Both the position numbers and the translations under genes were made by a program. The notes under the pieces were generated by a model that did no database searches, was not told where the DNA came from, and saw only the letters and a list, made by a program, of their open reading frames with translations. This document shows positions 51,046 to 64,000 of a DNA stretch of 64,000 nt, in pieces; position 1 is the stretch's first letter, and the number at the start of each line of letters is the position of its first letter. Origin of the DNA: Aromatoleum petrolei (GTDB lineage: Bacteria; Pseudomonadota; Gammaproteobacteria; Burkholderiales; Rhodocyclaceae); assembly GCF_017894385.1 (NCBI RefSeq), contig NZ_CP059560.1, forward strand, positions 4,038,501 to 4,102,500, read 5' to 3'.

Positions 51046-51459
51046 TCAGAGGCTGATCGAGGCTCCGATTGCGGCGATGCCTGCGCGCGCGATCAGGGCG
51101 TCGTCGGAGGATTTGACACCGGAGACACCCACTGCGCCGATCACTTCGCCGCCGACGACGATCATCTCGCCGCCTTCGAGCGGGGTGACGGGCAGGCCGA
51201 GGCCGGCGAAGCGCCCGTTGTTCACCATGTCTTCGATGGCCTTGCTGGGTTTGCGCATCATCACGCAGGTGCGGGCCTTCTCGGGCGCGACGCAGGCGCT
51301 CGACGGGGGCGCGTTGTCCAGGCGCTGAAGCCACAGCAGGTGGCCCCCTTCATCGCAGATCGCGATCGTGACGGCCCAGCCGTTGCGCAGGGCTTCGGTT
51401 TCCGCCGCGTTGGCGATCTTGCGTGCATCGTCGAGGGTCAGGACCTGGCGGGTCTTCAT
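51046..51459 (-). CDS. GlcG/HbpS-family protein (DUF336)
   Basis: The 137-residue protein begins MKTRQVLTLDDARKIANAAE, the standard start of the family; an upstream in-frame extension is discarded. It has the glycine-rich core GLPVTPLEGGEMIVVGGEVIG and the end GVSGVKSSDDALIARAGIAA. HbpS members bind heme and GlcG occurs with glycolate oxidase genes, yet the family role is broad. It stands alone 135 bases upstream of the HD-GYP gene on the same strand and may have its own promoter. Confidence 0.88.
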   Translation of the reverse strand: MKTRQVLTLDDARKIANAAETEALRNGWAVTIAICDEGGHLLWLQRLDNAPPSSACVAPEKARTCVMMRKPSKAIEDMVNNGRFAGLGLPVTPLEGGEMIVVGGEVIGAVGVSGVKSSDDALIARAGIAAIGASISL

Positions 51460-51734
51460 CTTGGGGCTCTCCAAAGGGCAAAAAGGGCGCAATTGTGCAG
51501 CGTGTGGCCGCTTTGGAGAAGCGTGCATAGGTGACCGAGCCGGGCGAGGGGGCCCGGGATGTCGGGGGGTGTGACGAATGCATGGGGTGCATGCACATTC
51601 TTGATGCGGATCACGTACATCTGTAGAAAACCGAAATACGCTGTCAATGCATCCCGTGCGCCGATTCCGAAAGAATACGCAAGGGAGATCCAGTTACCGC
51701 CTGAATGTGTGCGGAGCTGTTCGTGGAGAGAAAC
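51460..51734. other. 275-base intergenic region between DUF336 gene and chemoreceptor
   Basis: No gene, RNA or repeat is evident. It must hold the divergent promoters of both neighbours. A flagellar sigma-28 site was looked for in front of the chemoreceptor: GCCGATTC at 51660 resembles the -10, but no TAAA lies at the required distance. Confidence 0.5.
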
Positions 51735-53750
51735 TTGAAACTGATCTTTGCACCCGCCGTGGGGCTGATGAATCGCTGCAGCTACCCGGTGAAGTTTGGT
51801 CTGCTTGGGCTCATCATGCTGGTGGCCTTTGCGAGCCTGATGCTGACGCTGGCACGCCAGCTAAATGCAACGATAGAGCGGACGGAGCGCGAACTCGTCG
51901 CTTCCGAGTTGTCGCGGCCGATCTCCAGGGTGGTGGAGCTGATGCAGCAACATCGTGGCTTGTCGTCGGCGATGCTCGGGGGCCTGGAGAGCGCCAAGGC
52001 AACGCGCGCCGACAAGGCGGGCGAGGTCGACGGTGCGTTCGAAAAACTGGATGCTGCGCTTCCGCAGTCCGCGCGCGACCGGGAGTGGGGCGACATCCGT
52101 TCGCGCTGGAATGTGTTGAAGCAGGACGGGTTGAAGCTGAGCCAGCCGGAGAATTTTCAGACGCATACCGACTTGATCCACGACCTACTGGATTTCCAGA
52201 TCGCGGTGGCGGACGAGTTCGGATTGACCTTTGATCCGCAGCAGGACAGCTACTACCTCATGTCGACGGCTGTGATCCGCATGCCCTACCTGCTGGAGCG
52301 CATGGGCCAGCTTCGTGCGCGGGGGGCGGCCGTCCTCGCACGCGGCACGATAGATGACGCGGGCAAGTTGAAAGTGAGTGTGCTTGCGGGTGATGTGAAC
52401 GAGGCGCTCGGCGACCTGGACACCAATATTCGCAAGATCGTCGCGCAACGGCCGGATCTCGCGCAGCGGCTGGAATCATCGGTCGCCGAACTGAAGCAGA
52501 AGCTCGCCACGGTGAATGGCGTCGTCAGCGAGATCGTCAGCGGAAATCTTCAGAGTACCCTTTCCTCTGCGTATTTCGGGATGGCGACCGAGGCTATCGG
52601 CGTGGGCTACCGGCAGATGAACGAGCTCCTGCTGCCGACCCTGGATGACCTGCTGCGCCAGCGCATTGCCGAGGCGCAGCGCGTGCTGAATTTCAACATC
52701 GCGGTGCTGGTGGTGGTTGCGATCGCAATCGCCTACCTTTCGATCGGGGTGTATCTGTCCATCATGGGCAGCGTGAAGCGGCTGGCGGAAGGGAGCCACC
52801 GGCTGGCGGCCGGCGACCTGACGACGGCGATCCGACTGCAGGCACGCGACGAACTGCACGTGATCGCGGACAGCTTCAATGAAATGGCGACGACGATGTG
52901 CCGCCTGATCACGAGCATCCAGGGCAACTCGGGTCAGGTGGCGGAGACGGCCCGCGGCATGGTGGAGTCGGCACGCCAGATCGATACGGCCTCGCAGCGC
53001 CAGAGCGAGGCGGCTTCGAGCATGGCGGCGGCGGTGGAGGAGATGACGGTGGGTATCGACCATATCGCCGGCAATGCGACCAACGCGAACGAGATCGCGC
53101 GGCGCTCGGGCAAGTTGTCGGGCGAGGGGGGCGAGGTCGTCGAGTCGGTGGTTGCCGACATCGGGGAGATCGCCCGCGCAGTGTCCGGGTCGGCCGATAC
53201 CATCGCCGAACTGGACCGCAGCTCGGAGCGGATTTCGGCGATCGTGAACGTGATCAAGGAGATCGCCGACCAGACCAACCTGCTGGCGCTGAACGCGGCG
53301 ATCGAGGCCGCGCGCGCGGGCGAACTGGGGCGTGGCTTCGCGGTGGTGGCGGACGAGGTGCGGAAGTTGGCCGAGCGCACGACGCACTCGACGCAGGAGA
53401 TCGCACAGATGGTCGGGGCGATTCAGCGCGATGCGCGGGATGCCGTGAATAGCATGCAGGGTGGGGTCGCGCGGGTGAATACGGGCGTTGTACGTGCCCA
53501 GGAGGCGGGTGCCGCGATGGCGAGCATCCGCGACGAAGCGGGCCGGGTCGTGGAGACTGTGGCTGAGATCTCCGATGCCTTGCGCGAGCAGAGCGTGGCG
53601 TCGACGGAGATTGCGCGCAACGTCGAGACGATTGCGCGCATGGCCGAGGAGAACAGCGCGGTTGCGGTGCAGAGCCACCAGACGGCGGACCGGCTGGAGA
53701 GCCTCGCTGAGCGTCTGCTCGCGGATGTGAGCCGCTTCAAGGTGGCGTGA
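51735..53750 (+). CDS. Methyl-accepting chemotaxis protein
   Basis: I prefer TTG 51735 (671 residues) because GGAGAG precedes it and it yields the family-like start [17 protein letters not shown] 51705 is in frame without a ribosome site. A first membrane helix ([20 protein letters not shown], about 20-40) and a second ([20 protein letters not shown], about 325-345) enclose a 280-residue periplasmic helical sensor. The sensor contains [16 protein letters not shown], reminiscent of the Q-x2-R-G start of NIT-type nitrate sensors. HAMP then the signalling domain follow; the hairpin tip is [20 protein letters not shown]. No terminal CheR-binding pentapeptide is seen. It ends 15 bases from the AraC gene, convergent. 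Confidence 0.94.
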
Positions 53751-53765: not shown

Positions 53766-54788
53766 CTATGCGTGGGTGATGGGGGGCGACTGACGCAGCG
53801 TCTCGGAGGGTAGCTCGCCGAACATGGCACGGTAGTCCGACGCGAAGTGCGACAGGTGCCAGAAGCCCCAGCGCGCGGCGATGTCGGCGATCTGGTGGCT
53901 GGCGGGATCGGCGGACTTCAGTTCACGACGCACGCCGTTGAGGCGCAAGGCCCGCAGGAAGCTGACGGGGTTGAGGTTCAGGATGTCCTGGAAGCTGTAC
54001 TGCAGCGTGCGCCGGGACACGCGCAGCTCGGTGCACAGGTCGGCGACGGTGATTGGTTCGTCGATGTGTGCACGCATGTACTCGCGTGCGCGGTCGACGA
54101 TGAGCTGGCGCGTGCGGCAGGGCGTGGCCGGGCGGGGGGTGTCGTCGCGTGGCGTGATGGCGGCGACGATGCTGGCGTAGATTGCCTGCTCAAGCCCCTT
54201 GCGCATCTGCGGGTGGCGCAGCAGATCGGGGGTGGCCTCGAGGCTGGCAAGCACGGTGAGCAGGAAGCCGCGCAAGGTGGCGGCCTGGTCCGCGGTCGCG
54301 GCGATGACGCGCCGCTTGCCGATTTCGGCTTCAACGTCCCGGTGTTCGACGCGGAAGGCGTAATCGGTGAAGGTTTCGATGTCGGTCGTTACGGCGACGA
54401 TGTCGTGCAGGCGCGGGGTGCGGTAGTCGAGATCTTCTCCGCCCTTGAGGGTGATGATCGAATCGAGCTCGCACGTCTCGCCGCAGTACCAGCCGGTACC
54501 GTCGATCTCCACAGGTACGCCGATCGTGCGAGAGCCCTCCCACGACATGCCAATTTCATGAACGACCTGGTTGGTCCGTTCGCGGAATACCTGCACGTTG
54601 TCGAACCAGAATTCGTCGAAGCGCCCGGCGAAGGAGCCGGCGGAAAGCTGGTCGTAGCGCTGTCTCCAGTGTTGCAGGCAGGCTGCGTGGTCGTCTGCGT
54701 CGCGCGTGTCGAGATGCACGACGGAATACGCGTCATCGCCGGTTGTGCGCGCAATGTTGTCGCACCCGACGAGGGGGTGAGCATCCAT
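53766..54788 (-). CDS. AraC-family transcriptional activator (QhpR/FeaR-like)
   Basis: The 340-residue protein has an N-terminal AraC-binding-like domain (about 1-215; for example AGRFDEFWFDNVQVFRE and VHEIGMSWEGSRTIGVPVEI) and a C-terminal AraC DNA-binding domain with two helix-turn-helices: ITVADLCTELRVSRRTLQYS and HQIADIAARWGFWHLSHFAS, then DYRAMFGELPSETLR. The ribosome site GGAG lies before ATG 54788. It diverges from the DUF1329 gene, so it most likely activates that operon. Since the operon leads to an amine dehydrogenase, a role like QhpR (amine-responsive activator) is reasonable inference, not proof. Confidence 0.9.
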   Translation of the reverse strand: MDAHPLVGCDNIARTTGDDAYSVVHLDTRDADDHAACLQHWRQRYDQLSAGSFAGRFDEFWFDNVQVFRERTNQVVHEIGMSWEGSRTIGVPVEIDGTGWYCGETCELDSIITLKGGEDLDYRTPRLHDIVAVTTDIETFTDYAFRVEHRDVEAEIGKRRVIAATADQAATLRGFLLTVLASLEATPDLLRHPQMRKGLEQAIYASIVAAITPRDDTPRPATPCRTRQLIVDRAREYMRAHIDEPITVADLCTELRVSRRTLQYSFQDILNLNPVSFLRALRLNGVRRELKSADPASHQIADIAARWGFWHLSHFASDYRAMFGELPSETLRQSPPITHA

Positions 54789-54932: not shown

Positions 54933-55088
54933 CCTCGCTGCGGATTGCCGATTTCGGATAACGCCCCTGGAGCCCGCTTCCTACAATCGCCTCCATCGGT
55001 TGTGCCGCCGCGTGAGGACGCGGTCGGGAACATCCGGAAAAAAAAGCCGAACCGAACGGCACATCACTTCAAGTGAGGAGACGACAAC

Positions 55089-56465
55089 ATGACCAAGACG
55101 ACGAGCTCGCCTCGCCGCGCGCTTATCTGTATCACGCTCGCCGCGGTGCTGGGCAGCGGGGGGGCGCGTGCGGCAGCGACCGAGGCAGAAGCGGCTGCGC
55201 TGGGCAAGAACCTGACGCCAGTGGGAGCCGAGGCTGCTGCGAGCAAGGATGGCGCCATTCCGGCATGGGCGGGCGGAATGACGCAGGTGCCCGCCGGCTG
55301 GAAGCCGGGGTACCTGGATCCCTTCAAGGACGACAAGCCGCTGTTTTCGATCGATGCGGCCAACGTCGACAAGTACGCGGACAAGCTCTCGGCTGGCCAG
55401 CTCGCGCTGATCAAGACGTACAAGGGTTACCGTATGGACGTCTATCCGAGCCGGCGCAGCTGTCCGGTGCCGGATTTCGTGGCTGCACAGACGAAGAAGA
55501 ACGCGACCGCGGCGAAGCTGGGGGCGGACGGCTGGCAGCTCGAGCAGGTGTTCGGCGCGGGCGTGCCTTTCCCGATCCCGAAGACGGGCGCGGAGGCGAT
55601 GTGGAACTACAAGCTGCGCTATACGGGCCTGGGGCGCCGCGCGCAGATCTCGGCGCTGATGCCCGAGAAGGACGGCAGCTACGTCGAGAACAAGCAGTGG
55701 GCGTACGAGATGTATCCGTTCAACGATCCCAAGGTGAACGGGCCGGCGGATGTGGGCGGGGTGGAGTCGAAGCTGCTGTACGACGTGCTGACGCCGCCGT
55801 CGCGCGCGGGCGAGGGCTACCTGATCCACGCCTACATCGACAAGCCGCAGGATGCCTGGATCTATTTCCCGGGCCAGCGCCGCGTGCGCCGCTCGCCGAC
55901 CTTCGCCTATGACAATCCGATCGCGGGTTTCGACAACCTGTATTTCGTCGATCAGATCAACATGTTCACCGGCGCGCTCGACCGCTACGACTACAAGCTG
56001 GTGGGCAAGAAGGAGATGTACGTGTCGTACAACTCCTACAAGCTGATCAACAAGAAACAGAAGTTCAAGGACATGCTCGGGCCCGAGTATGTCAATCGCG
56101 ATCTGATGCGCTACGAGCCGCACCGCGTGTGGGTCGTCGAGGCGACGGTGAAGGCGGACAAGCGCCATTCCTTCGCGAAGCGGGTGTTCCACTTCGACGA
56201 GGACTCGTGGGCGCTGCTGCAGGTGGATATGTACGACGCCAAGGGCAACCTGTGGCGCGTGCAGGAAGGCAGCCTGTGGGCGGCGCCGGACGTCGGGGCG
56301 TGCATCGCGTACGAGACGCAGATGTACGACCTGGTCGCGCGCCGTTACGTGGTCGACAACTGGACGGCCGAAGGCGAGGTGCTGGACCTGACCGCCGCCA
56401 AGGACGGCCGGATCACCGCAGCCAACTTCACGCAGGACGAGATGCGCCGCCGCGGCGAGCGCTGA
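55089..56465 (+). CDS. DUF1329 periplasmic protein (LolA/LolB-like)
   Basis: The 458-residue protein has a clear signal peptide (about residues 1-28, cleaved near GARAA). The mature protein begins with the DUF1329 segment LGKNLTPVGAEAAASKDGAI followed by PAWAGGM, and later has VYPSRRSCPVPDF, SYVENKQWAYEMYPF and QRRVRRSPTFAYDNPIAGF. DUF1329 is related to the LolA/LolB fold that carries hydrophobic ligands across the periplasm, and it is usually found next to DUF1302. It is first in the operon, 27 bases before the DUF1302 gene. Confidence 0.9.
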   Translation: MTKTTSSPRRALICITLAAVLGSGGARAAATEAEAAALGKNLTPVGAEAAASKDGAIPAWAGGMTQVPAGWKPGYLDPFKDDKPLFSIDAANVDKYADKLSAGQLALIKTYKGYRMDVYPSRRSCPVPDFVAAQTKKNATAAKLGADGWQLEQVFGAGVPFPIPKTGAEAMWNYKLRYTGLGRRAQISALMPEKDGSYVENKQWAYEMYPFNDPKVNGPADVGGVESKLLYDVLTPPSRAGEGYLIHAYIDKPQDAWIYFPGQRRVRRSPTFAYDNPIAGFDNLYFVDQINMFTGALDRYDYKLVGKKEMYVSYNSYKLINKKQKFKDMLGPEYVNRDLMRYEPHRVWVVEATVKADKRHSFAKRVFHFDEDSWALLQVDMYDAKGNLWRVQEGSLWAAPDVGACIAYETQMYDLVARRYVVDNWTAEGEVLDLTAAKDGRITAANFTQDEMRRRGER

Positions 56466-56492
56466 TCCGCACACCACCAAGGGAGAATCTCC

Positions 56493-58268
56493 ATGAAGAA
56501 AAGGACGATTTCGGATCGTCGGGGCACGCTCGCGCCTTCGATCCTGGCTGTGGCGGTTGCGGCGGCATGCTGGTCGCCCGCCAGTTATGCGTTTCGCTTC
56601 GGTTCGGAAGAGGGATTGTCGGGCAGCTTCGACAGCACGGTGTCGTATGGCGTGATCAGCCGCCTGCAGTCGGCGGGCTGCAAGACCATCGGCAATGACA
56701 GCGGCGGCTGCAACAACACGACAAACAACGAGTTGATGACCAAGCAGGCGGGGAACGGTTACGCCAATGCCGATTTCAACTTCACGAACTTCGATGACGG
56801 CAATCTGAACTACAAGAAGGGCGACATCGTGTCGGCAGTGCTGAAGGGCACGCACGACCTGTCGCTGAAGTATCCGGGCGGGTGGAGCGCGCTGGCGCGC
56901 TTCAACTGGTTCGTGGATACGAAGTCGGACGACACGCGGCGCACCGACGTCGCGAGCGAGGCCTCGGGCGAGACGACGCTGCTCGATGCGTGGGTGGCGA
57001 AGGAATTCACGCTGGGCGATCGTCGCGGCAAGGTGAAACTCGGCAACCAGGTGATCTCCTGGGGCGAGGACATCTTCATCATCGGCGGCGTGAACCAGAT
57101 CAACGCAATCGACCTGCAGAAGTTCCATGTGCCGGGCACGCAGCTGAAGGAGATCTTCATCCCGGCGCCGATGCTGTCGGCGTCGCTGGGCCTGACGGAG
57201 AACCTCGGCGCGGAGGCCTACTACCAGTTCGGGTGGAACGGCTTCAAGTTCGACCCCGTGGGCACCTTCTTCTCTGCGGCCGACGTGCTGGGCAAGGGGC
57301 GGCGGGTGGCCTATGTGCCGACCAGCATCATCGAGGACTTCGCCGGCCCCGGCGCCTGCGCGGGGCTGCCGAGCGGGCATTGCGGCGACAATCCGGGCAT
57401 CTCCGATGCGGACGCGATCGCGGCCGGCATCGCGGTGCCTTACCTGCGGACGGATGCGCCCAAGAACACCGGCCAGTACGGCGTGAACTTCCGCTACAAC
57501 GCGGAGGAGATCGACACCGAGTTCGCCTTCACGTACCAGCGCTACCACGACAAGCTGCCTTTCCTCGGCTTCACCGGCAACGCCGCAGGCGCGGTGACCG
57601 GCTACTTCATCGCCTACGGGGAGGACAAAGACCTGTACGCGATCTCCGCGAACACGAAGATCGCGAACGTGGCGGTCGGCGCGGAGCTGTCGTACCGGCC
57701 CAACGACAGCGTCGGTATCGACCCGACGGTGCCCTTTGCCGGGAAGTACAGCATCTACCGCGATGGCGGCAGCAATCCGGGCTTCGTCGAGGAGGAGAAG
57801 TACCAATTCCACCTGACGGGCTTCTACACCTTCTCGCACAACGACCCGCTGGGCGGGTTCGCCAAGGCGCTGGGGGCAACGGACGGTTTCATCCTCGCGG
57901 AAGCTGCGGTGGCGCATTACCCGGGGCTGGATAACAGCGGGGTGACGCCGTACTTCCTGCCGAACTATGAACTGCCGGACAAGACCTCGTGGGGTTACGT
58001 GGTGGAAGGGGCGCTGAACTACCCGAACGTGTGGGGCACGGGCGTGACGCTGACGCCGCAGATCGACTGGTATCACGACGTCCATGGCACGACGCCGAAC
58101 GGGCTGCCCTTCGTTGAGGGGCGCAAGGCGCTGACGCTGTCGCTGTTCGCAAACTATCGCGACGCGTGGAAGGGCGGGATCCAGTGGGTGACCTTCTATG
58201 GCGGCGGCGCCAACAACCTGATGCGCGACCGCGACTTCCTGTCGGCGAGCGTTTCGTACTCGTTCTGA
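56493..58268 (+). CDS. DUF1302 outer-membrane beta-barrel protein
   Basis: The 591-residue protein has a signal peptide ending near residue 33 (ASYAF). The mature chain begins FRFGSEEGLSGSFDSTVSYG, typical of DUF1302, and alternates short amphipathic strands, for example GKVKLGNQVISWGEDIFI. It ends in an aromatic residue, ASVSYSF, the C-terminal signal for BAM-dependent insertion. DUF1302 proteins are predicted outer-membrane barrels for hydrophobic compounds. It lies between the DUF1329 and MMPL genes. Confidence 0.9.
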   Translation: MKKRTISDRRGTLAPSILAVAVAAACWSPASYAFRFGSEEGLSGSFDSTVSYGVISRLQSAGCKTIGNDSGGCNNTTNNELMTKQAGNGYANADFNFTNFDDGNLNYKKGDIVSAVLKGTHDLSLKYPGGWSALARFNWFVDTKSDDTRRTDVASEASGETTLLDAWVAKEFTLGDRRGKVKLGNQVISWGEDIFIIGGVNQINAIDLQKFHVPGTQLKEIFIPAPMLSASLGLTENLGAEAYYQFGWNGFKFDPVGTFFSAADVLGKGRRVAYVPTSIIEDFAGPGACAGLPSGHCGDNPGISDADAIAAGIAVPYLRTDAPKNTGQYGVNFRYNAEEIDTEFAFTYQRYHDKLPFLGFTGNAAGAVTGYFIAYGEDKDLYAISANTKIANVAVGAELSYRPNDSVGIDPTVPFAGKYSIYRDGGSNPGFVEEEKYQFHLTGFYTFSHNDPLGGFAKALGATDGFILAEAAVAHYPGLDNSGVTPYFLPNYELPDKTSWGYVVEGALNYPNVWGTGVTLTPQIDWYHDVHGTTPNGLPFVEGRKALTLSLFANYRDAWKGGIQWVTFYGGGANNLMRDRDFLSASVSYSF

Positions 58269-58328
58269 TGCACTTGCCGGCGCCGGGGGAGGCAGTCTCC
58301 CCTGCGCCGGCCCAATGGATATCCCGAC

Positions 58329-60692
58329 ATGATCGAGAAACTCGTGCTGGCGATGCAGCGCGTGTGCTTCAGGCACCGCCTGCTGATCCTGCTGGCGCTG
58401 CTCGGCTTCACGGTGGTCATGGCGCTGTTCGCGTCGCGACTGCACATGAGTGCCGGCTTCGACAAGCAGTTGCCGCAAGACCACGAATACATCCAGACCT
58501 TCAACCAGTATCGCGAGGTGCTGTTCGGCGCGAACCGCATCATCGTGACCGTCGAGGCGACCAAGGGCGATATCTGGAACGAGAAGGCGCTGACCAAGCT
58601 TTATGACGTGACGCAGGCGCTCTTCTTCATGAAGGGCGTGGACCGGCGCACGGTCACGTCCTTGTGGACACCGAACACCCGCGCGGTCCAGATCACCGAG
58701 GAGGGCATGAAGGCCGAGGACGTGATCGGCGGCGACGTGACCGTGAAGGCGCTCACGCCGGACAACATCACCGCGATCCGCGAGCGCACGATCGTCGGCG
58801 GCTTCATCGGCTCGCTGGTCGCGAACGACTCGTCGTCGGCGATGGTGGTGGCAGAGCTGGCGGACCCCGATCCGCAGACCGGTGAGCGCCTCGATTACGC
58901 CGAATTCAGCCAGAGGCTGGAAACCGAGGTGCGTGACACCTTCAGCGACGCCGACGTGAAGATCCGCATCATCGGCTTTGCGAAGCAGATGGGCGACATC
59001 TCGGAAGGGGCGACCAGCGTGATCGAGTTCTTCGCGCTGGCCTTCCTGCTGACCGCCGCCGCCGTCTATTGGTATACGCGCTCGTGGCTCTTGACCTTCC
59101 TGCCGCTGTCGTGCTCGCTGGTTTCGGTGGTGTGGCAGTTCGGCACGATCACGCTGCTGGGCTTCGGCCTCGACCCGCTGGCGATCCTGGTGCCCTTCCT
59201 GGTGTTCGCGATCGGGGTGTCGCACGGCATCCAGCAGGTGAATTACATCGCCAAGGAGGTCATCAACGGCGCGGACGGCTACACGGCGGCGAGCCGCAGC
59301 TTCACCGGGCTGCTGGTCCCGGGGACGCTGGCGCTGATCACGGCCTTCGTCGGCTTCGCGACGCTGGTGCTGGTGCCGATTCCGATGATTCGCGAGCTGG
59401 CGATCACCGCGTCCGTGGGTGTGGCGTACAAGATCGTGACGAACCTGATCATGCTGCCGGTGCTGGCGAGCTATTTCCGCTTCGACGAGCGCTTCATCGT
59501 GCGTGCGACGAAGATGGAGGGCCTGCGCAATCGCATGATGGCGTCGCTGGGCGTACATATCGCCAATCCACGGAACGCCGCGATCGGCACGCTGGTGTGC
59601 CTCGCGCTGCTGGTGGTGGCGGTGTGGCAGAGCCAAGGGCGGCACGTAGGCCACGTGCTGCCGGGCGCGCCGGAGCTGCATGACGATTCGCGCTACAACC
59701 AAGACGTCGAAGCGGTGGTCGCGCGCTATGCGCTGGGGCTGGACCTGCTGACCGTGGTGGTCGAGTCGCCGGCCGACGGCTGCTATCGCCACGACGTCAT
59801 GAGCCATGTCGACCGGCTGACCTGGTACCTCGCGAACGTGCCGGGCGTGCTCTCGGCGCAGTCGCTGCCGGCGATGACGAAGCTGGCTGCGTCGGGTGTC
59901 AATGAAGGTAATCCGAAGTGGGCCGCGCTGCCGCAGGAGGAGCTGACCCTGGGCGAGGCGGTGCGCCAGGTGCCCGAGGGCATGCGGCTCTTCAACGCGG
60001 ACTGCACCTTGCTGCCGGTGAACCTGTATCTGGCGGACCACAAGGCCTCGACGATCAAGGAGGTGGTCGCCGCGGTGAAGCACTTCCGCGAGATGCAGCC
60101 CTTCCCCGGAGTGACCGTGCGGCTCGCCAGCGGCAATGCCGGCGTGCAGGCGGCGACCAACGAGGTCGTCGAACATTCCGAGCTGCCGATGATGCTCTAC
60201 GTGTATGCGACGATCCTGGTGCTGGTGTTTGCGGTGTATCGCGACTGGCGCGCGATGGTCGCGTGCTGCGTGCCGCTGACGCTGGCGACTTTCCTCGGCT
60301 ACTGGTTCATGAAGGAACTGGACATCGGCCTGACGGTGGCGACGCTGCCGGTGATGGTGCTGGCGGTGGGGATCGGCGTCGATTACGCGTTCTACATCTA
60401 CAACCGGCTGCAGATGCATCTGGCGCACGGCGAGGACATCGTCACGGCGTTCAAGCAGGCCCTGCGCGAGATCGGTGTGGCGACCGTGTTCACGGCGGTG
60501 ACGCTGTCGATCGGCGTGGCGACCTGGTCCTTCTCGGCGCTGAAGTTCCAGGCCGACATGGGGATGCTGCTGACCTTCATGTTCATGATGAACATGATCA
60601 TGGCGATCACGCTGCTGCCGGCACTGGCCGTGACGATAGACATTCTGATCCCAAGGCGCAGCCCGGTTCGCGCGCCGCTCATGGCGCACTGA
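58329..60692 (+). CDS. RND/MMPL-family transporter
   Basis: The 787-residue protein has two repeats of one helix, a large periplasmic loop and five helices, about 12 helices in total. Repeat 1: helix near residues 17-37, loop to about 230, then LAFLLTAAAVYWYTRSWLL, IAILVPFLVFAIGVSHGIQQ and PGTLALITAFVGFATLVLVP. Repeat 2 has YATILVLVFAVYRDWRAMV, VMVLAVGIGVDYAFYIYNRL and TLSIGVATWSFSALKFQADM with MGMLLTFMFMMN. These match the MMPL branch that exports or moves lipids and hydrophobic compounds, not the tripartite drug pumps: no membrane-fusion protein is encoded beside it. It follows the DUF1302 gene by 60 bases and YCF48 by 11. Confidence 0.92.
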   Translation: MIEKLVLAMQRVCFRHRLLILLALLGFTVVMALFASRLHMSAGFDKQLPQDHEYIQTFNQYREVLFGANRIIVTVEATKGDIWNEKALTKLYDVTQALFFMKGVDRRTVTSLWTPNTRAVQITEEGMKAEDVIGGDVTVKALTPDNITAIRERTIVGGFIGSLVANDSSSAMVVAELADPDPQTGERLDYAEFSQRLETEVRDTFSDADVKIRIIGFAKQMGDISEGATSVIEFFALAFLLTAAAVYWYTRSWLLTFLPLSCSLVSVVWQFGTITLLGFGLDPLAILVPFLVFAIGVSHGIQQVNYIAKEVINGADGYTAASRSFTGLLVPGTLALITAFVGFATLVLVPIPMIRELAITASVGVAYKIVTNLIMLPVLASYFRFDERFIVRATKMEGLRNRMMASLGVHIANPRNAAIGTLVCLALLVVAVWQSQGRHVGHVLPGAPELHDDSRYNQDVEAVVARYALGLDLLTVVVESPADGCYRHDVMSHVDRLTWYLANVPGVLSAQSLPAMTKLAASGVNEGNPKWAALPQEELTLGEAVRQVPEGMRLFNADCTLLPVNLYLADHKASTIKEVVAAVKHFREMQPFPGVTVRLASGNAGVQAATNEVVEHSELPMMLYVYATILVLVFAVYRDWRAMVACCVPLTLATFLGYWFMKELDIGLTVATLPVMVLAVGIGVDYAFYIYNRLQMHLAHGEDIVTAFKQALREIGVATVFTAVTLSIGVATWSFSALKFQADMGMLLTFMFMMNMIMAITLLPALAVTIDILIPRRSPVRAPLMAH

Positions 60693-60703
60693 GGAGGCCC
60701 GAC

Positions 60704-61672
60704 ATGACATCGATGCAAATCGGGCGGACCCTGGTCGGCCTGTGCCTGGCGGCAAGTGCTGCCGTGTTCGCGGCCGCCCCGGCCGATGCGGCCAAGGTGC
60801 CGGCGCCGGCGATGAAGGCGCGGCTGGCGGCGAAGGTGCCGGTGACCGGGCTGGTGCGCGCGGGCAATGCGCTCGTCGCGGTGGGGGACTACGGCACGAT
60901 CGTGCGCTCGACCGACGAGGGCAAGACCTGGCAGCAGGCCGAGGTACCGCTGAGCACGCTGCTGACCGCGGTGCATTTCGTCGACGAGATGCGCGGTTGG
61001 GCGGTCGGGCATGGTGGCGTGATCCTCGCGACCACCGACGGCGGTGCGAACTGGCAGCTGCAGGCGACGCTGGACGAAAAGCCGGTGCTGCTGTCGGTGT
61101 ATTTCGCCGATGCGCAACGCGGCTATGCGGTTGGCGCCTATGGCGCAGCCTTCGTGACCCTGGACGGTGGTCACGTGTGGAAACCGTTGGCTGTGGGCAG
61201 TGGCCGGGACGGCGATTTTCACCTCAACCACATCTTCGGCACGCGCGACGGAAAGCTCTTTATCGCCGCGGAAACCGGCGTCGCGTTCCGTTCCACCGAT
61301 CGCGGTACGAGCTGGACCAAGCTGGCGACCGGCGTGTCGGGCTCGCTGTGGAGCGGGCTCGAACGGGCGGACGGCGAGGTCGTGCTGCTGGGCATGAGCG
61401 GGCGCGTGCTCGCGAGCCGCGACGGCGGCACCACCTGGCAGGTACGCGAGACGGGGACCGAGCAGTCGCTGACCTCCGGAATCGCGCTCGCGAACGGCGG
61501 GATGATCGTCGTCGGTGCGGGCGGGGTCGTGCTGCGCGGCAGCGGGACGGCGCCCTACCAGCTGGAGGTGCGCCCGGACCGTCAGAACCTCGCGGCCGTC
61601 GTCGCGGCGCCGACGGGGGCGGTCGTCGTCGGTGGCCAGCTCGGTGTCGAGCGCCTCGCACCCACCAAATAA
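60704..61672 (+). CDS. YCF48-family beta-propeller, exported
   Basis: ATG 60704 with GGAGG gives 322 residues; a longer frame inside the transporter gene is rejected. A signal peptide ends near residue 30 (PADAAK). The rest is a beta-propeller of WD-like YCF48/sialidase-type repeats: VRSTDEGKTW, LATTDGGANW, FVTLDGGHVW, FRSTDRGTSW and LASRDGGTTW, about 40-45 residues apart. YCF48 in phototrophs assists photosystem II assembly; in heterotrophs such proteins are found beside MMPL and DUF1302 genes. Likely a periplasmic scaffold of the transport system. Confidence 0.88.
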   Translation: MTSMQIGRTLVGLCLAASAAVFAAAPADAAKVPAPAMKARLAAKVPVTGLVRAGNALVAVGDYGTIVRSTDEGKTWQQAEVPLSTLLTAVHFVDEMRGWAVGHGGVILATTDGGANWQLQATLDEKPVLLSVYFADAQRGYAVGAYGAAFVTLDGGHVWKPLAVGSGRDGDFHLNHIFGTRDGKLFIAAETGVAFRSTDRGTSWTKLATGVSGSLWSGLERADGEVVLLGMSGRVLASRDGGTTWQVRETGTEQSLTSGIALANGGMIVVGAGGVVLRGSGTAPYQLEVRPDRQNLAAVVAAPTGAVVVGGQLGVERLAPTK

Positions 61673-61693
61673 CAGGGACAGGGAGACCCGCGC

Positions 61694-62173
61694 ATGCTCA
61701 CCAAACTGATGGCGCTGCTGTCTGGCGAACTCCATGCCGAAGGGCTCGAAACGGGCCCCTTCGAGCGCCGGCACATCGCCGTGGCGGCACTGCTGCTCGA
61801 AGCGATGTACATCGACCACCGCGCGAGCGAGCGCGAGCAGGGGGCGATCAGGCGCCTGCTGTGCGAGCACTTCGCGCTGCCCGAGGAGGCCGCCCGCAAG
61901 CTCGTCGAGGTGGCCGACGAGCGCTTTGCGGAGGTGCTGGACGACTGGGAGTTCGCCGAGGCCGTGCGCGCCGGTTTCAACGCCGCCGAACGGCGCGAGG
62001 TGCTGACGATGCTGTGGGAGGTCGCCTACGCGGACGGTGATCTCGAACGGCTCGAGGAGCGGCTGGTGTCGCGCCTCGCGCATCAGCTGGACATCGACGC
62101 GGAAGGAGCGGATGCAGCACGCGCGACGGCGGTGGCGCGCGCGGGGCTGATCGACGGCGGACCGGACGCGTGA
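61694..62173 (+). CDS. TerB-like helical protein
   Basis: The 159-residue protein matches the TerB/DUF533-type seven-helix fold: HIAVAALLLEAMYIDHRASE, then EVLDDWEFAEAVRAGFNAA, and MLWEVAYADGDLERLEERL with the acidic D-x-D-x2-L metal motif. It has no signal peptide, so it is cytoplasmic. The ribosome site is ACAGGGAGAC. It lies 21 bases after the YCF48 gene and 48 before the aldehyde dehydrogenase. Tellurite resistance is not implied; family members appear in many contexts. Its role in this operon is unknown. Confidence 0.8.
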   Translation: MLTKLMALLSGELHAEGLETGPFERRHIAVAALLLEAMYIDHRASEREQGAIRRLLCEHFALPEEAARKLVEVADERFAEVLDDWEFAEAVRAGFNAAERREVLTMLWEVAYADGDLERLEERLVSRLAHQLDIDAEGADAARATAVARAGLIDGGPDA

Positions 62174-62221
62174 TTCCAGGTCGATAAAGAAACCAACCCA
62201 TAAGACAGAGGAGACAGGTAC

Positions 62222-63724
62222 ATGGAGAGTTACCACGGACAACTGCTGAGCGAAGGCACGCGGCGCTTTCTGGAGCGCCCGCGGCGCATGCTGATCGGCG
62301 CCGAGTGGGTCGAGGCGGCGAGCGGCGAGACGCTGGCGGTGGTCGATCCGGCCAATGGCGAGAAATTTGCCAGCGTGCCGGCGGGCGGGGCGGCGGACAT
62401 CGACCGTGCAGTCGCTGCGGCGCGCCGCGCTTTCGAGAGCGGTGACTGGCCGAAGATGCGCCCGGTCGATCGCGAGCGGCTGCTGCTGAAATTCGCCGAC
62501 CTGGTCGAGGCGAATGCGCAGGAGCTTGCGGAGATCGAGTCGCTCGACAACGGCAAGCCGGTGACGATGGCTCGCCACGTCGACGTCGCACTGGTGGTCG
62601 ATTTCCTACGCTACATGGCGGGCTGGGCGACCAAGATCGAGGGCTCGACGATGGACGTGTCGGTGCCCATCATCCGCGATCGCGAGTTCTTCGGCTTCAC
62701 GCGCCGCGAACCGGTCGGCGTGGTCGGCGCGATCATCCCGTGGAACTTCCCGCTGCTGATGGCGGCGTGGAAGGTGGCGCCGGCCCTCGCCACCGGCTGC
62801 ACGATGGTGCTGAAGCCCGCCGAGGAGACGCCGCTGTCGGCGCTGCGCTTCGCGGAACTCGCGCTGGATGCGGGCTATCCGGCGGGCGTGCTGAACGTCG
62901 TCACCGGCCTCGGACACACCGCGGGCGCGGCGCTGGCGTCGCACAAGGGTGTCGAGAAGGTCGCCTTCACCGGTTCGACCGAGATCGGCAAGCTGGTCGG
63001 CAAGGCAGCGCTCGACAACATGACGCGCGTGTCGCTGGAACTGGGCGGCAAGAGCCCGGTGATCGTGCTCGACGACGCGGACGTGAGTGCGGCAGCAGCA
63101 GGGGCGGCGCAGGCGATCTTCTTCAATCAGGGGCAGGTGTGCACGGCCGGTTCGCGGCTCTTCGTGCATAAGAGCCGCTTCGACGAGGTCGTCGAGGGGC
63201 TGTCGGGGATCGCCGCCGGCATGAAGCTCGGTGCCGGCATCGACCCGACGACGCAGATCGGCCCGCTGGTGTCGGCCACGCAGCAGAAGCGCGTGCTGGG
63301 CTACATCGAGAGCGGCTTCGCCGAAGGCGCGCGGGCCGCGACCGGCGGCGCGGCGGGCGAGGGCGCGGGCTACTTCGTGAAGCCGACGGTGCTGGTCGAC
63401 ACGACGGACGACATGAAGGTCGTGCGCGAGGAGATCTTCGGACCCGTCGTCGTCGCGATGCCCTACGAGGATCTCGACGAAGTCGCTCGTCGCGCGAACG
63501 ACACGCCCTACGGGCTCGCCGCGAGCATCTGGTCGAACGACCTGTCGCGCGTGCATCGCCTGATCCCCAAGATCCAGGCCGGCACCGTGTGGGTGAACTG
63601 CCACAACATCCTCGACAACGCGATGCCCTTCGGCGGCTTCAAGCAGTCCGGCATCGGGCGCGAGATGGGGCGCGCGGTGCTCGACCTATACACCGAATCG
63701 AAGTCCGTGATCATGGCTTTGTGA
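62222..63724 (+). CDS. NAD-dependent aldehyde dehydrogenase (phenylacetaldehyde dehydrogenase-like)
   Basis: The 500-residue enzyme oxidises an aldehyde to its acid. The general base Glu273 is in LELGGKSPVI, the nucleophile Cys307 in FFNQGQVCTAGSRL, and GAIIPWNFPLLMAAWKVAPA, FTGSTEIGKLVG and EEIFGPVVVAMPY are standard ALDH motifs. The N-terminus (RRMLIGAEWVEAASGETLAV) and the C-terminal PFGGFKQSGIGREMGRAVL resemble phenylacetaldehyde dehydrogenases (FeaB/PeaE). Next to an amine dehydrogenase it would oxidise the aldehyde released from the amine. The exact substrate is inference. Confidence 0.92.
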   Translation: MESYHGQLLSEGTRRFLERPRRMLIGAEWVEAASGETLAVVDPANGEKFASVPAGGAADIDRAVAAARRAFESGDWPKMRPVDRERLLLKFADLVEANAQELAEIESLDNGKPVTMARHVDVALVVDFLRYMAGWATKIEGSTMDVSVPIIRDREFFGFTRREPVGVVGAIIPWNFPLLMAAWKVAPALATGCTMVLKPAEETPLSALRFAELALDAGYPAGVLNVVTGLGHTAGAALASHKGVEKVAFTGSTEIGKLVGKAALDNMTRVSLELGGKSPVIVLDDADVSAAAAGAAQAIFFNQGQVCTAGSRLFVHKSRFDEVVEGLSGIAAGMKLGAGIDPTTQIGPLVSATQQKRVLGYIESGFAEGARAATGGAAGEGAGYFVKPTVLVDTTDDMKVVREEIFGPVVVAMPYEDLDEVARRANDTPYGLAASIWSNDLSRVHRLIPKIQAGTVWVNCHNILDNAMPFGGFKQSGIGREMGRAVLDLYTESKSVIMAL

Positions 63725-63788
63725 GTGCGGCGCGCCGCCCCGGATTTGCCGTGGCGGCGCTTTTCCTCACCGGAGACTGGAGACAGAA

Positions 63789-64000
63789 GTGAAGGCGCAG
63801 ACCACACAACACACGCGCAGGCGACTGCGCATTGCCGGCGCCGTGGCGCTGGCCCTGGGAATGGCGGGCTCGCTGCCGGCCGCGGCGGCGCAGGATCCCG
63901 GCCGCGACGTCATCGACAAGAAGTGTGCGAGCTGTCACCTCGAGGACGGCAAGCTCACGCGCATCCCGGAGATGCGCAAATCGCCCGAAGGCTGGGACAT
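63789..64000 (+). CDS. qhpA: c-type cytochrome, probable quinohemoprotein amine dehydrogenase alpha subunit (3' end cut off by window)
   Basis: Only the first 70 codons are in the window. GTG 63789 has GGAGAC 7 bases upstream. A signal peptide (about residues 1-34, RRRLRIAGAVALALGMAG then AAAAQ) is followed by a heme c site CASCH (46-50) and by LTRIPEMRKSPEGWD. That segment matches the alpha subunit of quinohemoprotein amine dehydrogenase (Paracoccus: CAACH, then R-x-ARKTPEGWDMT). The enzyme oxidises primary amines in the periplasm through a CTQ cofactor in a small gamma subunit. If right, qhpD, qhpC and qhpB-type genes should lie just past the edge. A different dihaem cytochrome cannot be excluded on 70 residues. 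Confidence 0.75.
   Translation, partial: MKAQTTQHTRRRLRIAGAVALALGMAGSLPAAAAQDPGRDVIDKKCASCHLEDGKLTRIPEMRKSPEGWD

What the first reader, a model, noticed from the sequence alone, without database searches (positions are those of the whole stretch)
55089..64000. A hydrophobic-compound envelope system embedded in an apparent amine-oxidation operon
Seen in sequence: eight same-strand genes or gene starts run without strong breaks from DUF1329 and DUF1302 (outer-membrane barrel) through an MMPL pump, an exported YCF48 propeller and a TerB-like protein to an aldehyde dehydrogenase and a probable quinohemoprotein amine dehydrogenase, diverging from an AraC activator. Established: DUF1302, DUF1329, MMPL and YCF48 genes recur side by side in Proteobacteria without a settled function; amine dehydrogenase plus aldehyde dehydrogenase forms a known two-step pathway. 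Inference: the four envelope proteins form one trans-envelope conduit (barrel, LolB-like shuttle, pump, scaffold) that moves the hydrophobic amine, its aldehyde or acid product, or another membrane-active compound. The fixed linkage of conduit and periplasmic amine oxidation would be a new functional assignment.
Basis: partly seen in the sequence, partly recalled or inferred. Interest (0 to 1): 0.7.

Follow-up and report, generated by a model that had tools for sequence, protein, structure and literature searches.

The report
Amine-oxidation operon with hydrophobe pump module
A bacterium carries one operon that joins a periplasmic amine-oxidising enzyme to an envelope pump module of a kind known to protect against oily compounds, and two further genes of that operon may let the enzyme's built-in cofactor be made without oxygen.

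Summary
AraC, DUF1329, DUF1302, an HAE3-like MMPL pump, YCF48, TerB and a StyD-like aldehyde dehydrogenase run, with 11-64 bp gaps between the co-directional genes, into a complete quinohemoprotein amine dehydrogenase (qhp) operon. The linkage is not unique: 12 of 12 betaproteobacterial qhpA loci with full flanks carry the module, 0 of 36 others, in several arrangements. All 18 linked DUF1329 proteins in a tree fall in one subclade; its other member from this genome sits beside a flavin amine oxidase and an aldehyde dehydrogenase. Cargo and direction are not shown; the closest precedent, AmeABCD, points to outward transport of hydrophobes.

More novel are two genes after qhpE, outside the window: one clearly UbiU-like, one with a UbiV-like cysteine pattern but no significant family match. 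In 79 qhp loci the pair occurs in 17 and the O2-dependent hydroxylase QhpG in 38, never both; some other operons carry both. In the genus 10 of 17 genomes have the pair and no QhpG. The pair is a candidate O2-independent maturase for the CTQ cofactor (inference).

The parts
53766..54788 (-). AraC-family regulator, EutR-like, divergent from the operon
   Evidence: PF12833 78.6 bits; NF007522 EutR 204 bits, below its cut-off 319; an AraC gene stands divergent in the Aromatoleum operon I loci whose stretch reaches it
54945..54987 (+). Conserved element TTGCCGATTTCGGATAACG (54945-54963) and TACAAT (54982-54987); reading them as activator site and -10 is inference
   Evidence: Alignment of 8 Aromatoleum intergenic regions, nearly invariant; position; the consensus scan found no sigma-70 site
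55089..56465 (+). DUF1329 protein (AmeB-like, LolA superfamily), signal peptide by eye
   Evidence: PF07044 457.9 bits
56493..58268 (+). DUF1302 outer-membrane-barrel type protein (AmeA-like)
   Evidence: PF06980 485.4 bits
58329..60692 (+). MMPL/HAE3-like RND pump (AmeD-like), 787 aa
   Evidence: PF03176 86.2 bits; TIGR00921 HAE3 169.8 bits, below its cut-off 351.9
60704..61672 (+). YCF48 beta-propeller with signal peptide by eye (AmeC-like)
   Evidence: PF14870 77.5 bits; ATG at 60704
61694..62173 (+). TerB-domain protein, no signal peptide by eye; role unknown
   Evidence: PF05099 99.4 bits; in all 16 Aromatoleum operon I loci (window plus 15 loci)
62222..63724 (+). Aldehyde dehydrogenase without visible export signal, closest to phenylacetaldehyde dehydrogenase StyD
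   Evidence: PF00171 599.5 bits; NF045735 StyD 750 bits, below its cut-off 850; in 11 of 16 Aromatoleum operon I loci (window)
63789..64000 (+). Start of qhpA, QHNDH alpha subunit; continues to G000:C1:4103902. Then, all outside the window: QhpD 4103918-4105345, gamma to 4105662, beta 4105666-4106754, ABC exporter (QhpF position) 4106765-4108483, QhpE 4108480-4109175, U32V 4109172-4110074, U32U 4110077-4111123
   Evidence: TIGR03908 733 bits, TIGR03906 741, NF037958 160, TIGR03907 499, NF049966 244, all above cut-off; U32U PF01136 144 bits; U32V 300 aa and U32U 348 aa

Best explanation
This is an AraC-controlled operon for growth on primary (probably aromatic) amines. Shown by sequence: QHNDH subunits, their maturases and an aldehyde dehydrogenase. 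From established knowledge: QHNDH oxidises the amine in the periplasm, and the aldehyde is then oxidised in the cytoplasm. Shown by survey: a subclade of AmeABCD-like envelope modules stays beside qhp across Betaproteobacteria in several gene orders, which suggests that selection keeps the link. Inferred: the module moves the membrane-active compound that periplasmic amine oxidation produces or handles, most likely the hydrophobic aldehyde, out of the inner membrane and periplasm through HAE3-like pump, DUF1329 carrier and DUF1302 barrel, with YCF48 as assembly or docking partner. Inferred: the two genes after qhpE, one UbiU-like and one with a UbiV-like cysteine pattern, hydroxylate the CTQ-precursor tryptophan without O2 in place of QhpG, so that the enzyme can be made under denitrifying conditions.
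For: Complete qhp set above curated cut-offs. Module beside qhpA in 12 of 12 betaproteobacterial loci with at least 9 kb on both sides, 0 of 36 others, and in 16 of 17 Aromatoleum genomes (window). Arrangements: upstream, downstream, divergent, and across an ALDH from the U32 pair. In Rhodocyclaceae MAG STA_62 the only DUF1329 found is the qhp-linked one. DUF1329 tree: all 18 linked rows (16 with qhp genes seen, 2 beside the U32 pair at a contig end) in a 22-row subclade, none among the 27 rows outside. The own-genome member of that subclade lies by a flavin amine oxidase (PF01593, Tat-like RRNFLR start) and an ALDH. AmeABCD deletion lowers growth on monoterpenes and raises Nile Red load in CCCP-treated cells. 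Pair versus QhpG: 17 loci pair only, 38 QhpG only, 0 both of 79; genus: 10 pair only, 6 both, 1 QhpG only, 0 neither. U32U against UbiU: hhalign 99.7%, E 3.6e-27.
Against: No cargo or direction was tested. A P. putida set of the same families is needed to use Tween 20, which may mean uptake. Own operon II, EbN1-like operon II and nine loci of genus group g446 have qhp without the module in the stretch fetched; Glaciimonas KJC.1 has qhp and the pair but no DUF1329 found. The beta-only distribution is partly phylogeny. Subclade support is 92/91 and the qhp label needs 5 changes on the tree. U32V is not recognised by Pfam or NCBIfam; it matches UbiV no better than UbiU (5.5% each), and 45% with a deeper profile. 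Six pair-bearing Aromatoleum genomes also hold a QhpG. Operon II here and in EbN1-like G328, and three g446 loci, carry both near qhp. A weak terminator-like site lies before qhpA.
Confidence: 0.6

Rival explanations
1. The module is an uptake route: barrel and DUF1329 bring a hydrophobic amine or precursor to the periplasm, with the MMPL protein working as importer partner.
For: P. putida PP_0765/PP_0766 (DUF1302/DUF1329) with PP_2018/PP_2019 are needed for metabolism of Tween 20, and co-folding suggested contacts.
Against: AmeABCD deletion acts as loss of tolerance: growth with limonene up to 5 mM is regained when acetate is added, and dye load rises in CCCP-treated cells; but real-time dye efflux was alike in both strains. 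Small amines should need no dedicated barrel (general knowledge).
Confidence: 0.25
2. The linkage is inherited from one ancestral betaproteobacterial operon and has no functional meaning for amine oxidation.
For: Within Aromatoleum the module proteins are 68-98% identical to those of the window, and the module is absent from 36 of 36 fully flanked loci outside Betaproteobacteria.
Against: Gene order and orientation differ between lineages, which a neutral link would hardly survive. A member of the same DUF1329 subclade lies by an unrelated flavin amine oxidase.
Confidence: 0.12
3. The pair after qhpE has another role, and QHNDH in species without QhpG uses an unrecognised hydroxylase.
For: U32V is not a detectable UbiV by curated models; Fe-S binding and hydroxylation were not tested. 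Nine fully flanked non-beta loci have neither protein within about 10 kb; of three such genomes searched, two hold a QhpG elsewhere and one small MAG does not.
Against: In the family-level search 18 of 23 non-Aromatoleum U32V loci hold qhp genes in the fetched stretch and the other 5 are cut by a contig end. Pair and QhpG do not overlap in 79 loci. The nearest curated families of U32U are UbiU and TrhP, both hydroxylases.
Confidence: 0.3

Closest known systems
qhp operon of Paracoccus denitrificans and Pseudomonas putida (QHNDH; PMC7876137, passages read)
   Same: Alpha, beta, gamma subunits, QhpD, QhpE, ABC exporter; the CxDxCWW stretch of gamma is in 72 of the 73 surveyed loci where gamma was found
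   Different: QhpG not in this operon; two U32-type genes after qhpE; envelope module, TerB and ALDH in front
AmeABCD, apolar monoterpene efflux, Castellaniella defragrans (PMC6394551, parts 1-3 of 5 read)
   Same: DUF1302, DUF1329, COG4447 (YCF48-type) and HAE3 RND pump, of near-equal lengths (605, 451, 316, 787 aa against 591, 458, 322, 787)
   Different: Gene order here is B-A-D-C; amine rather than monoterpene genes beside it; the Ame sequences were not compared directly
PP_0765/PP_0766 with PP_2018/PP_2019, Pseudomonas putida (PMC10866462, passages and section 12 read)
   Same: DUF1302 and DUF1329 with a periplasmic protein and an efflux transporter, proposed as a transport system
   Different: Two separate loci in P. 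putida, linked to Tween 20 use
UbiU-UbiV O2-independent hydroxylase of Escherichia coli (PMC6747719, PMC10470549, passages read)
   Same: A U32 protein with CX6C beside a second protein of about 300 aa with CXnCXnCX3C; predicted barrels
   Different: Own genome has a separate UbiU-UbiV pair, named from its cysteine pattern; U32U is far below the UbiU cut-off; U32V is a motif-level match only
QHNDHs of Aromatoleum aromaticum EbN1 (Schmitt et al. 2019)
   Same: By its title two QHNDHs start anaerobic degradation of aromatic amines (title in a reference list); an EbN1-like genome, G328, has both operon types
   Different: Paper not held, so whether it discusses the two genes could not be checked

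Membership tests
QHNDH enzyme | Alpha, beta and gamma subunits above curated cut-offs | tested here: met
   TIGR03908, TIGR03907, NF037958
QHNDH enzyme | Radical SAM QhpD and protease QhpE | tested here: met
   TIGR03906 741 bits, NF049966 244 bits
Canonical qhp operon of the P. putida / P. denitrificans type | QhpG flavoprotein in the operon | tested here: not met
   None beside operon I; the only strong QhpG match in this genome is in operon II at 192741-194060
AmeABCD-type four-part HAE3 system | All four components adjacent | tested here: met
   DUF1329, DUF1302, MMPL, YCF48 consecutive
AmeABCD-type four-part HAE3 system | Pump is an HAE3 member over the curated cut-off | tested here: not met
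   TIGR00921 is the best NCBIfam match but 169.8 bits against cut-off 351.9
AmeABCD-type four-part HAE3 system | Pump lies in the AmeD lineage | not tested
   No AmeD sequence was used
AmeABCD-type four-part HAE3 system | Efflux of hydrophobes | not testable with these tools
   Needs a mutant
UbiU (O2-independent hydroxylase) | U32 domain and UbiU-family similarity | tested here: met
   PF01136 144 bits; hhalign 99.7% with UbiU
UbiU (O2-independent hydroxylase) | UbiU equivalog | tested here: not met
   NF047963 75-88 bits, cut-off 440
UbiU (O2-independent hydroxylase) | Cysteine motif CX6CX16CX38C | tested here: inconclusive
   CX6C exact and invariant in 12 of 12; the next cysteines differ in spacing (C179, C186, C200, C255 in L058 numbering; C200 in 11 of 12)
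UbiV (O2-independent hydroxylase partner) | Cysteine motif CXnCX12CX3C | tested here: inconclusive
   CXnCX18CX3C; C72, C224, C243, C247 invariant in 38 of 38
UbiV (O2-independent hydroxylase partner) | Homology to UbiV | tested here: inconclusive
UbiU-UbiV | 4Fe-4S clusters, heterodimer, O2-independent hydroxylation | not testable with these tools
   Needs purified proteins or mutants
QhpG | NF049967 over cut-off | tested here: met
   Own operon II copy 419 bits, G338 copy 411 and stand-alone A. toluolicum copy 550 bits, cut-off 240; none of these is in an operon like that of the window

The most novel reading that the evidence does not exclude
The two genes after qhpE encode a dedicated O2-independent peptidyl-tryptophan hydroxylase, a U32-type iron-sulfur hydroxylase acting on a protein, which replaces flavoprotein QhpG and lets betaproteobacteria build the CTQ cofactor without oxygen; and one subclade of AmeABCD-like modules is dedicated to periplasmic amine oxidation.
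Probability: 0.5. Interest if true: 0.85.

Novelty: new variant of a known kind. Interest (0 to 1): 0.64.

Why it matters
QhpG takes both oxygen atoms of CTQ from O2, so how denitrifiers make QHNDH without O2 is a question that this gene pair makes testable. The survey also gives one subclade of the poorly understood DUF1302/DUF1329/MMPL/YCF48 modules a chemical context, periplasmic amine-to-aldehyde oxidation, shared in this genome by two unrelated amine-oxidising enzymes.

Tried and rejected
U32V against NCBIfam and Pfam: no family for the query; of 12 members one matched PF01136, at E 0.044. Profile searches of PDB sequences with U32U and U32V gave nothing below E 0.04. U32V on plasmids: no match. 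The class-level sample of 369 genomes had 2 with qhpA, the own genome among them, and the order sample 3 of 300 over cut-off, the own genome among them: too few for an unbiased test. The U32 column came from a wrong reading frame and is void; it was redone. Rejected: 'QhpG and the pair always exclude each other', since own operon II, EbN1-like operon II and three g446 loci have both (in the three the QhpG match lies at the edge of the stretch). Rejected: 'the module type is for amines only', since 13 DUF1302-DUF1329 pairs exist here; their neighbours were listed as ORFs and only those of L050 were scanned. Before the tree five spurious ORFs were dropped, and L105, though labelled linked, gave no row. 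L060, a MAG labelled Lysobacteraceae with near-Aromatoleum genes, was counted as non-beta. Limits of the searches: mostly the 61 best candidates per genome were scored, the 6 best; one search kept the best 80 of 92 relatives.
Full report
What is there. The window lies at G000:C1:4038501-4102500 of a 5.4 Mb one-contig genome. A 300-aa protein 96% identical to U32V of A. evansii KB740 is listed for Aromatoleum evansii on a 5,407,429-base contig, so the host is probably A. evansii or very near it (inference). The gene cut at the window end is the alpha subunit of quinohemoprotein amine dehydrogenase; next come QhpD, gamma, beta, an ABC exporter and QhpE, all but the ABC protein over curated cut-offs. 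The co-directional genes are 11 to 64 bp apart; a weak terminator-like site, at a chance-level count for the region, lies before qhpA. Between AraC and DUF1329 an element at 54945-54963 followed by TACAAT at 54982-54987 is nearly invariant in 8 Aromatoleum loci; reading it as activator site and -10 is inference.

Is the linkage chance? qhpA loci were drawn from named genomes with a 20-sequence profile: 92 stretches encoded a relative, the best 80 were kept, 79 distinct loci. Of those with at least 9 kb on each side, 12 of 12 betaproteobacterial loci and 0 of 36 others hold two or more module genes. I assigned 'betaproteobacterial' from record titles, and L070 from its later placement in the same family. 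Over all 79 loci, 17 of 19 beta loci hold at least one module gene and 0 of 60 others do; the two beta loci without are L068 (Glaciimonas KJC.1, in whose genome no DUF1329 was found) and L070, both cut close upstream. In the genus, 17 of 17 genomes have qhpA; 16 have the operon of the window, counting the window and 15 fetched loci, while G338 has only the second type. The module is downstream of qhp in Herminiimonas, Glaciimonas KJS.1 and two Rhodocyclaceae MAGs (L146-L149), divergent upstream in three relatives where only DUF1329 and DUF1302 fell in the stretch (L183-L185), and upstream of an ALDH and the U32 pair in two more whose contigs end there, so that qhp itself was not seen (L186, L195). 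TerB is in all 16 Aromatoleum operons, the ALDH in 11 of 16.

Which module is it? The genome holds 13 DUF1302-DUF1329 pairs and 12 near-full-length MMPL relatives, the window's own included, so the module type is not special to amines. A tree of 49 DUF1329 proteins (54 collected, 5 spurious ORFs dropped, no row from L105) puts all 18 linked rows in a 22-row subclade (support 92/91); 16 of the 18 have qhp genes in view and 2 (L186, L195) the U32 pair only. None of the 27 rows outside is linked, but the label still needs 5 changes. Of the 4 unlinked members, three come from MAG contigs (L213, L219, L220) and one from this genome (L050). L050 has an aldehyde dehydrogenase on one side and on the other a flavin amine oxidase that begins with a twin-arginine-like stretch. 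The outside rows come only from qhp-bearing genomes, so the subclade may have members elsewhere that I did not sample.

How it may work. AmeABCD of Castellaniella defragrans (parts 1-3 of 5 read) is DUF1302, DUF1329, a COG4447 protein and an HAE3 pump; its deletion lowers growth on non-functionalised monoterpenes and raises Nile Red load in CCCP-treated cells, though real-time dye efflux was alike in both strains. P. putida relatives are needed for Tween 20 metabolism and were proposed as a transport system (passages and one section read). In Methyloversatilis universalis, also Rhodocyclales, a table lists qhp transcripts about 10-fold changed between methanol and methylamine growth (passage seen). 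QHNDH works in the periplasm while the aldehyde dehydrogenase here has no export signal by eye, so a reactive hydrophobic aldehyde must lie in or cross the inner membrane. I take outward movement of that compound, or of the amine, as most likely; it is not shown.

The unexpected part. Two genes follow qhpE: U32V (300 aa) and U32U (348 aa). QhpG, identified by its P. putida copy matching PDB 7ctq, puts two O2-derived oxygens into the CTQ-precursor tryptophan (passages of PMC7876137). In the 79 loci 38 have QhpG only, 17 the pair only (16 beta, 1 Brevibacillus MAG), none both, 24 neither; of the 24, three are beta loci cut short (L061, L073, L105) and 21 are others, nine of them fully flanked. 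Whole-genome search of 28 genomes found QhpG at E below 1e-100 in 9 and a weaker match (1.8e-35) in one mixed MAG; in the other 18 only partial matches of 1.4e-10 or weaker were listed, mostly from the 61 best candidates per genome. Among the 9 are Glaciimonas KJC.1, which also has the pair, and two genomes whose qhpA locus had neither (G323, G325). Seven more Aromatoleum genomes: QhpG in 4. In four of the six with both, QhpG stands apart from qhp: two by their fetched neighbourhoods (L168, L169) and two by coordinates (G333, G334). A family-wide search found U32V in 36 of 395 genomes; of 23 non-Aromatoleum loci fetched, 18 hold qhp genes in the stretch and 5 are cut by a contig end. Genus group g446, where nine loci have qhp without the module, is Thauera by a contig-length match to a named protein (inference).

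Prior knowledge. [quoted passage not shown] I recall, without a call, that it reports CTQ maturation without O2. G328, with a 4,296,230-base contig, has both operon types; that this is EbN1 is recalled. Searches for U32 with cysteine tryptophylquinone and for peptidase U32 with amine dehydrogenase found no paper in the held library, and the listing of 13 papers with UbiU and UbiV showed none on QHNDH by title. Most subscription papers are not held, so prior mention is not excluded.

Verdict. Observation confirmed and extended; conduit reading partly supported; the novel candidate is the pair after qhpE as O2-independent CTQ maturase.

Noticed in passing
L040/L041, genome 192741-207035 (-): Second qhp operon with AraC, U32 pair, ALDH, qhpADCBFE, a 735-aa ORF and QhpG; the nearest module, a distant paralogue, starts about 10.6 kb from QhpG. 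In the G338 counterpart (L162) the 734-aa protein at that place matches Cytochrom_C_asm.
   Followed up: partly
L050, genome 425048-435720 (-): Module of the qhp subclade beside a flavin amine oxidase with Tat-like start and an aldehyde dehydrogenase; substrate unknown.
   Followed up: partly
L176, genome 2478633-2483166 (-): Four U32-domain matches in a row, with a similar row in A. evansii KB740, G300; role unknown.
   Followed up: no
L168:9827-11182: Stand-alone QhpG (550 bits, cut-off 240) in A. toluolicum, next to a 1967-aa RTX-repeat protein and no other qhp gene in the stretch; A. tolulyticum also has a QhpG without qhp genes in its stretch (L169).
   Followed up: partly
L135:9452-16092: Brevibacillus-labelled MAG contig with divergent qhp genes and the U32 pair; its gamma subunit lacks the CxDxCWW motif as searched.
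   Followed up: no
window 51046-53750: HbpS-like protein (-) and a methyl-accepting chemotaxis protein (+) just before the AraC gene; a link to amine sensing was not tested.
   Followed up: no
L094, L095, L100, L127 and other Emcibacter-type loci: Some alphaproteobacterial MAGs hold two qhpA loci, one of them without a QhpD match near by.
   Followed up: no
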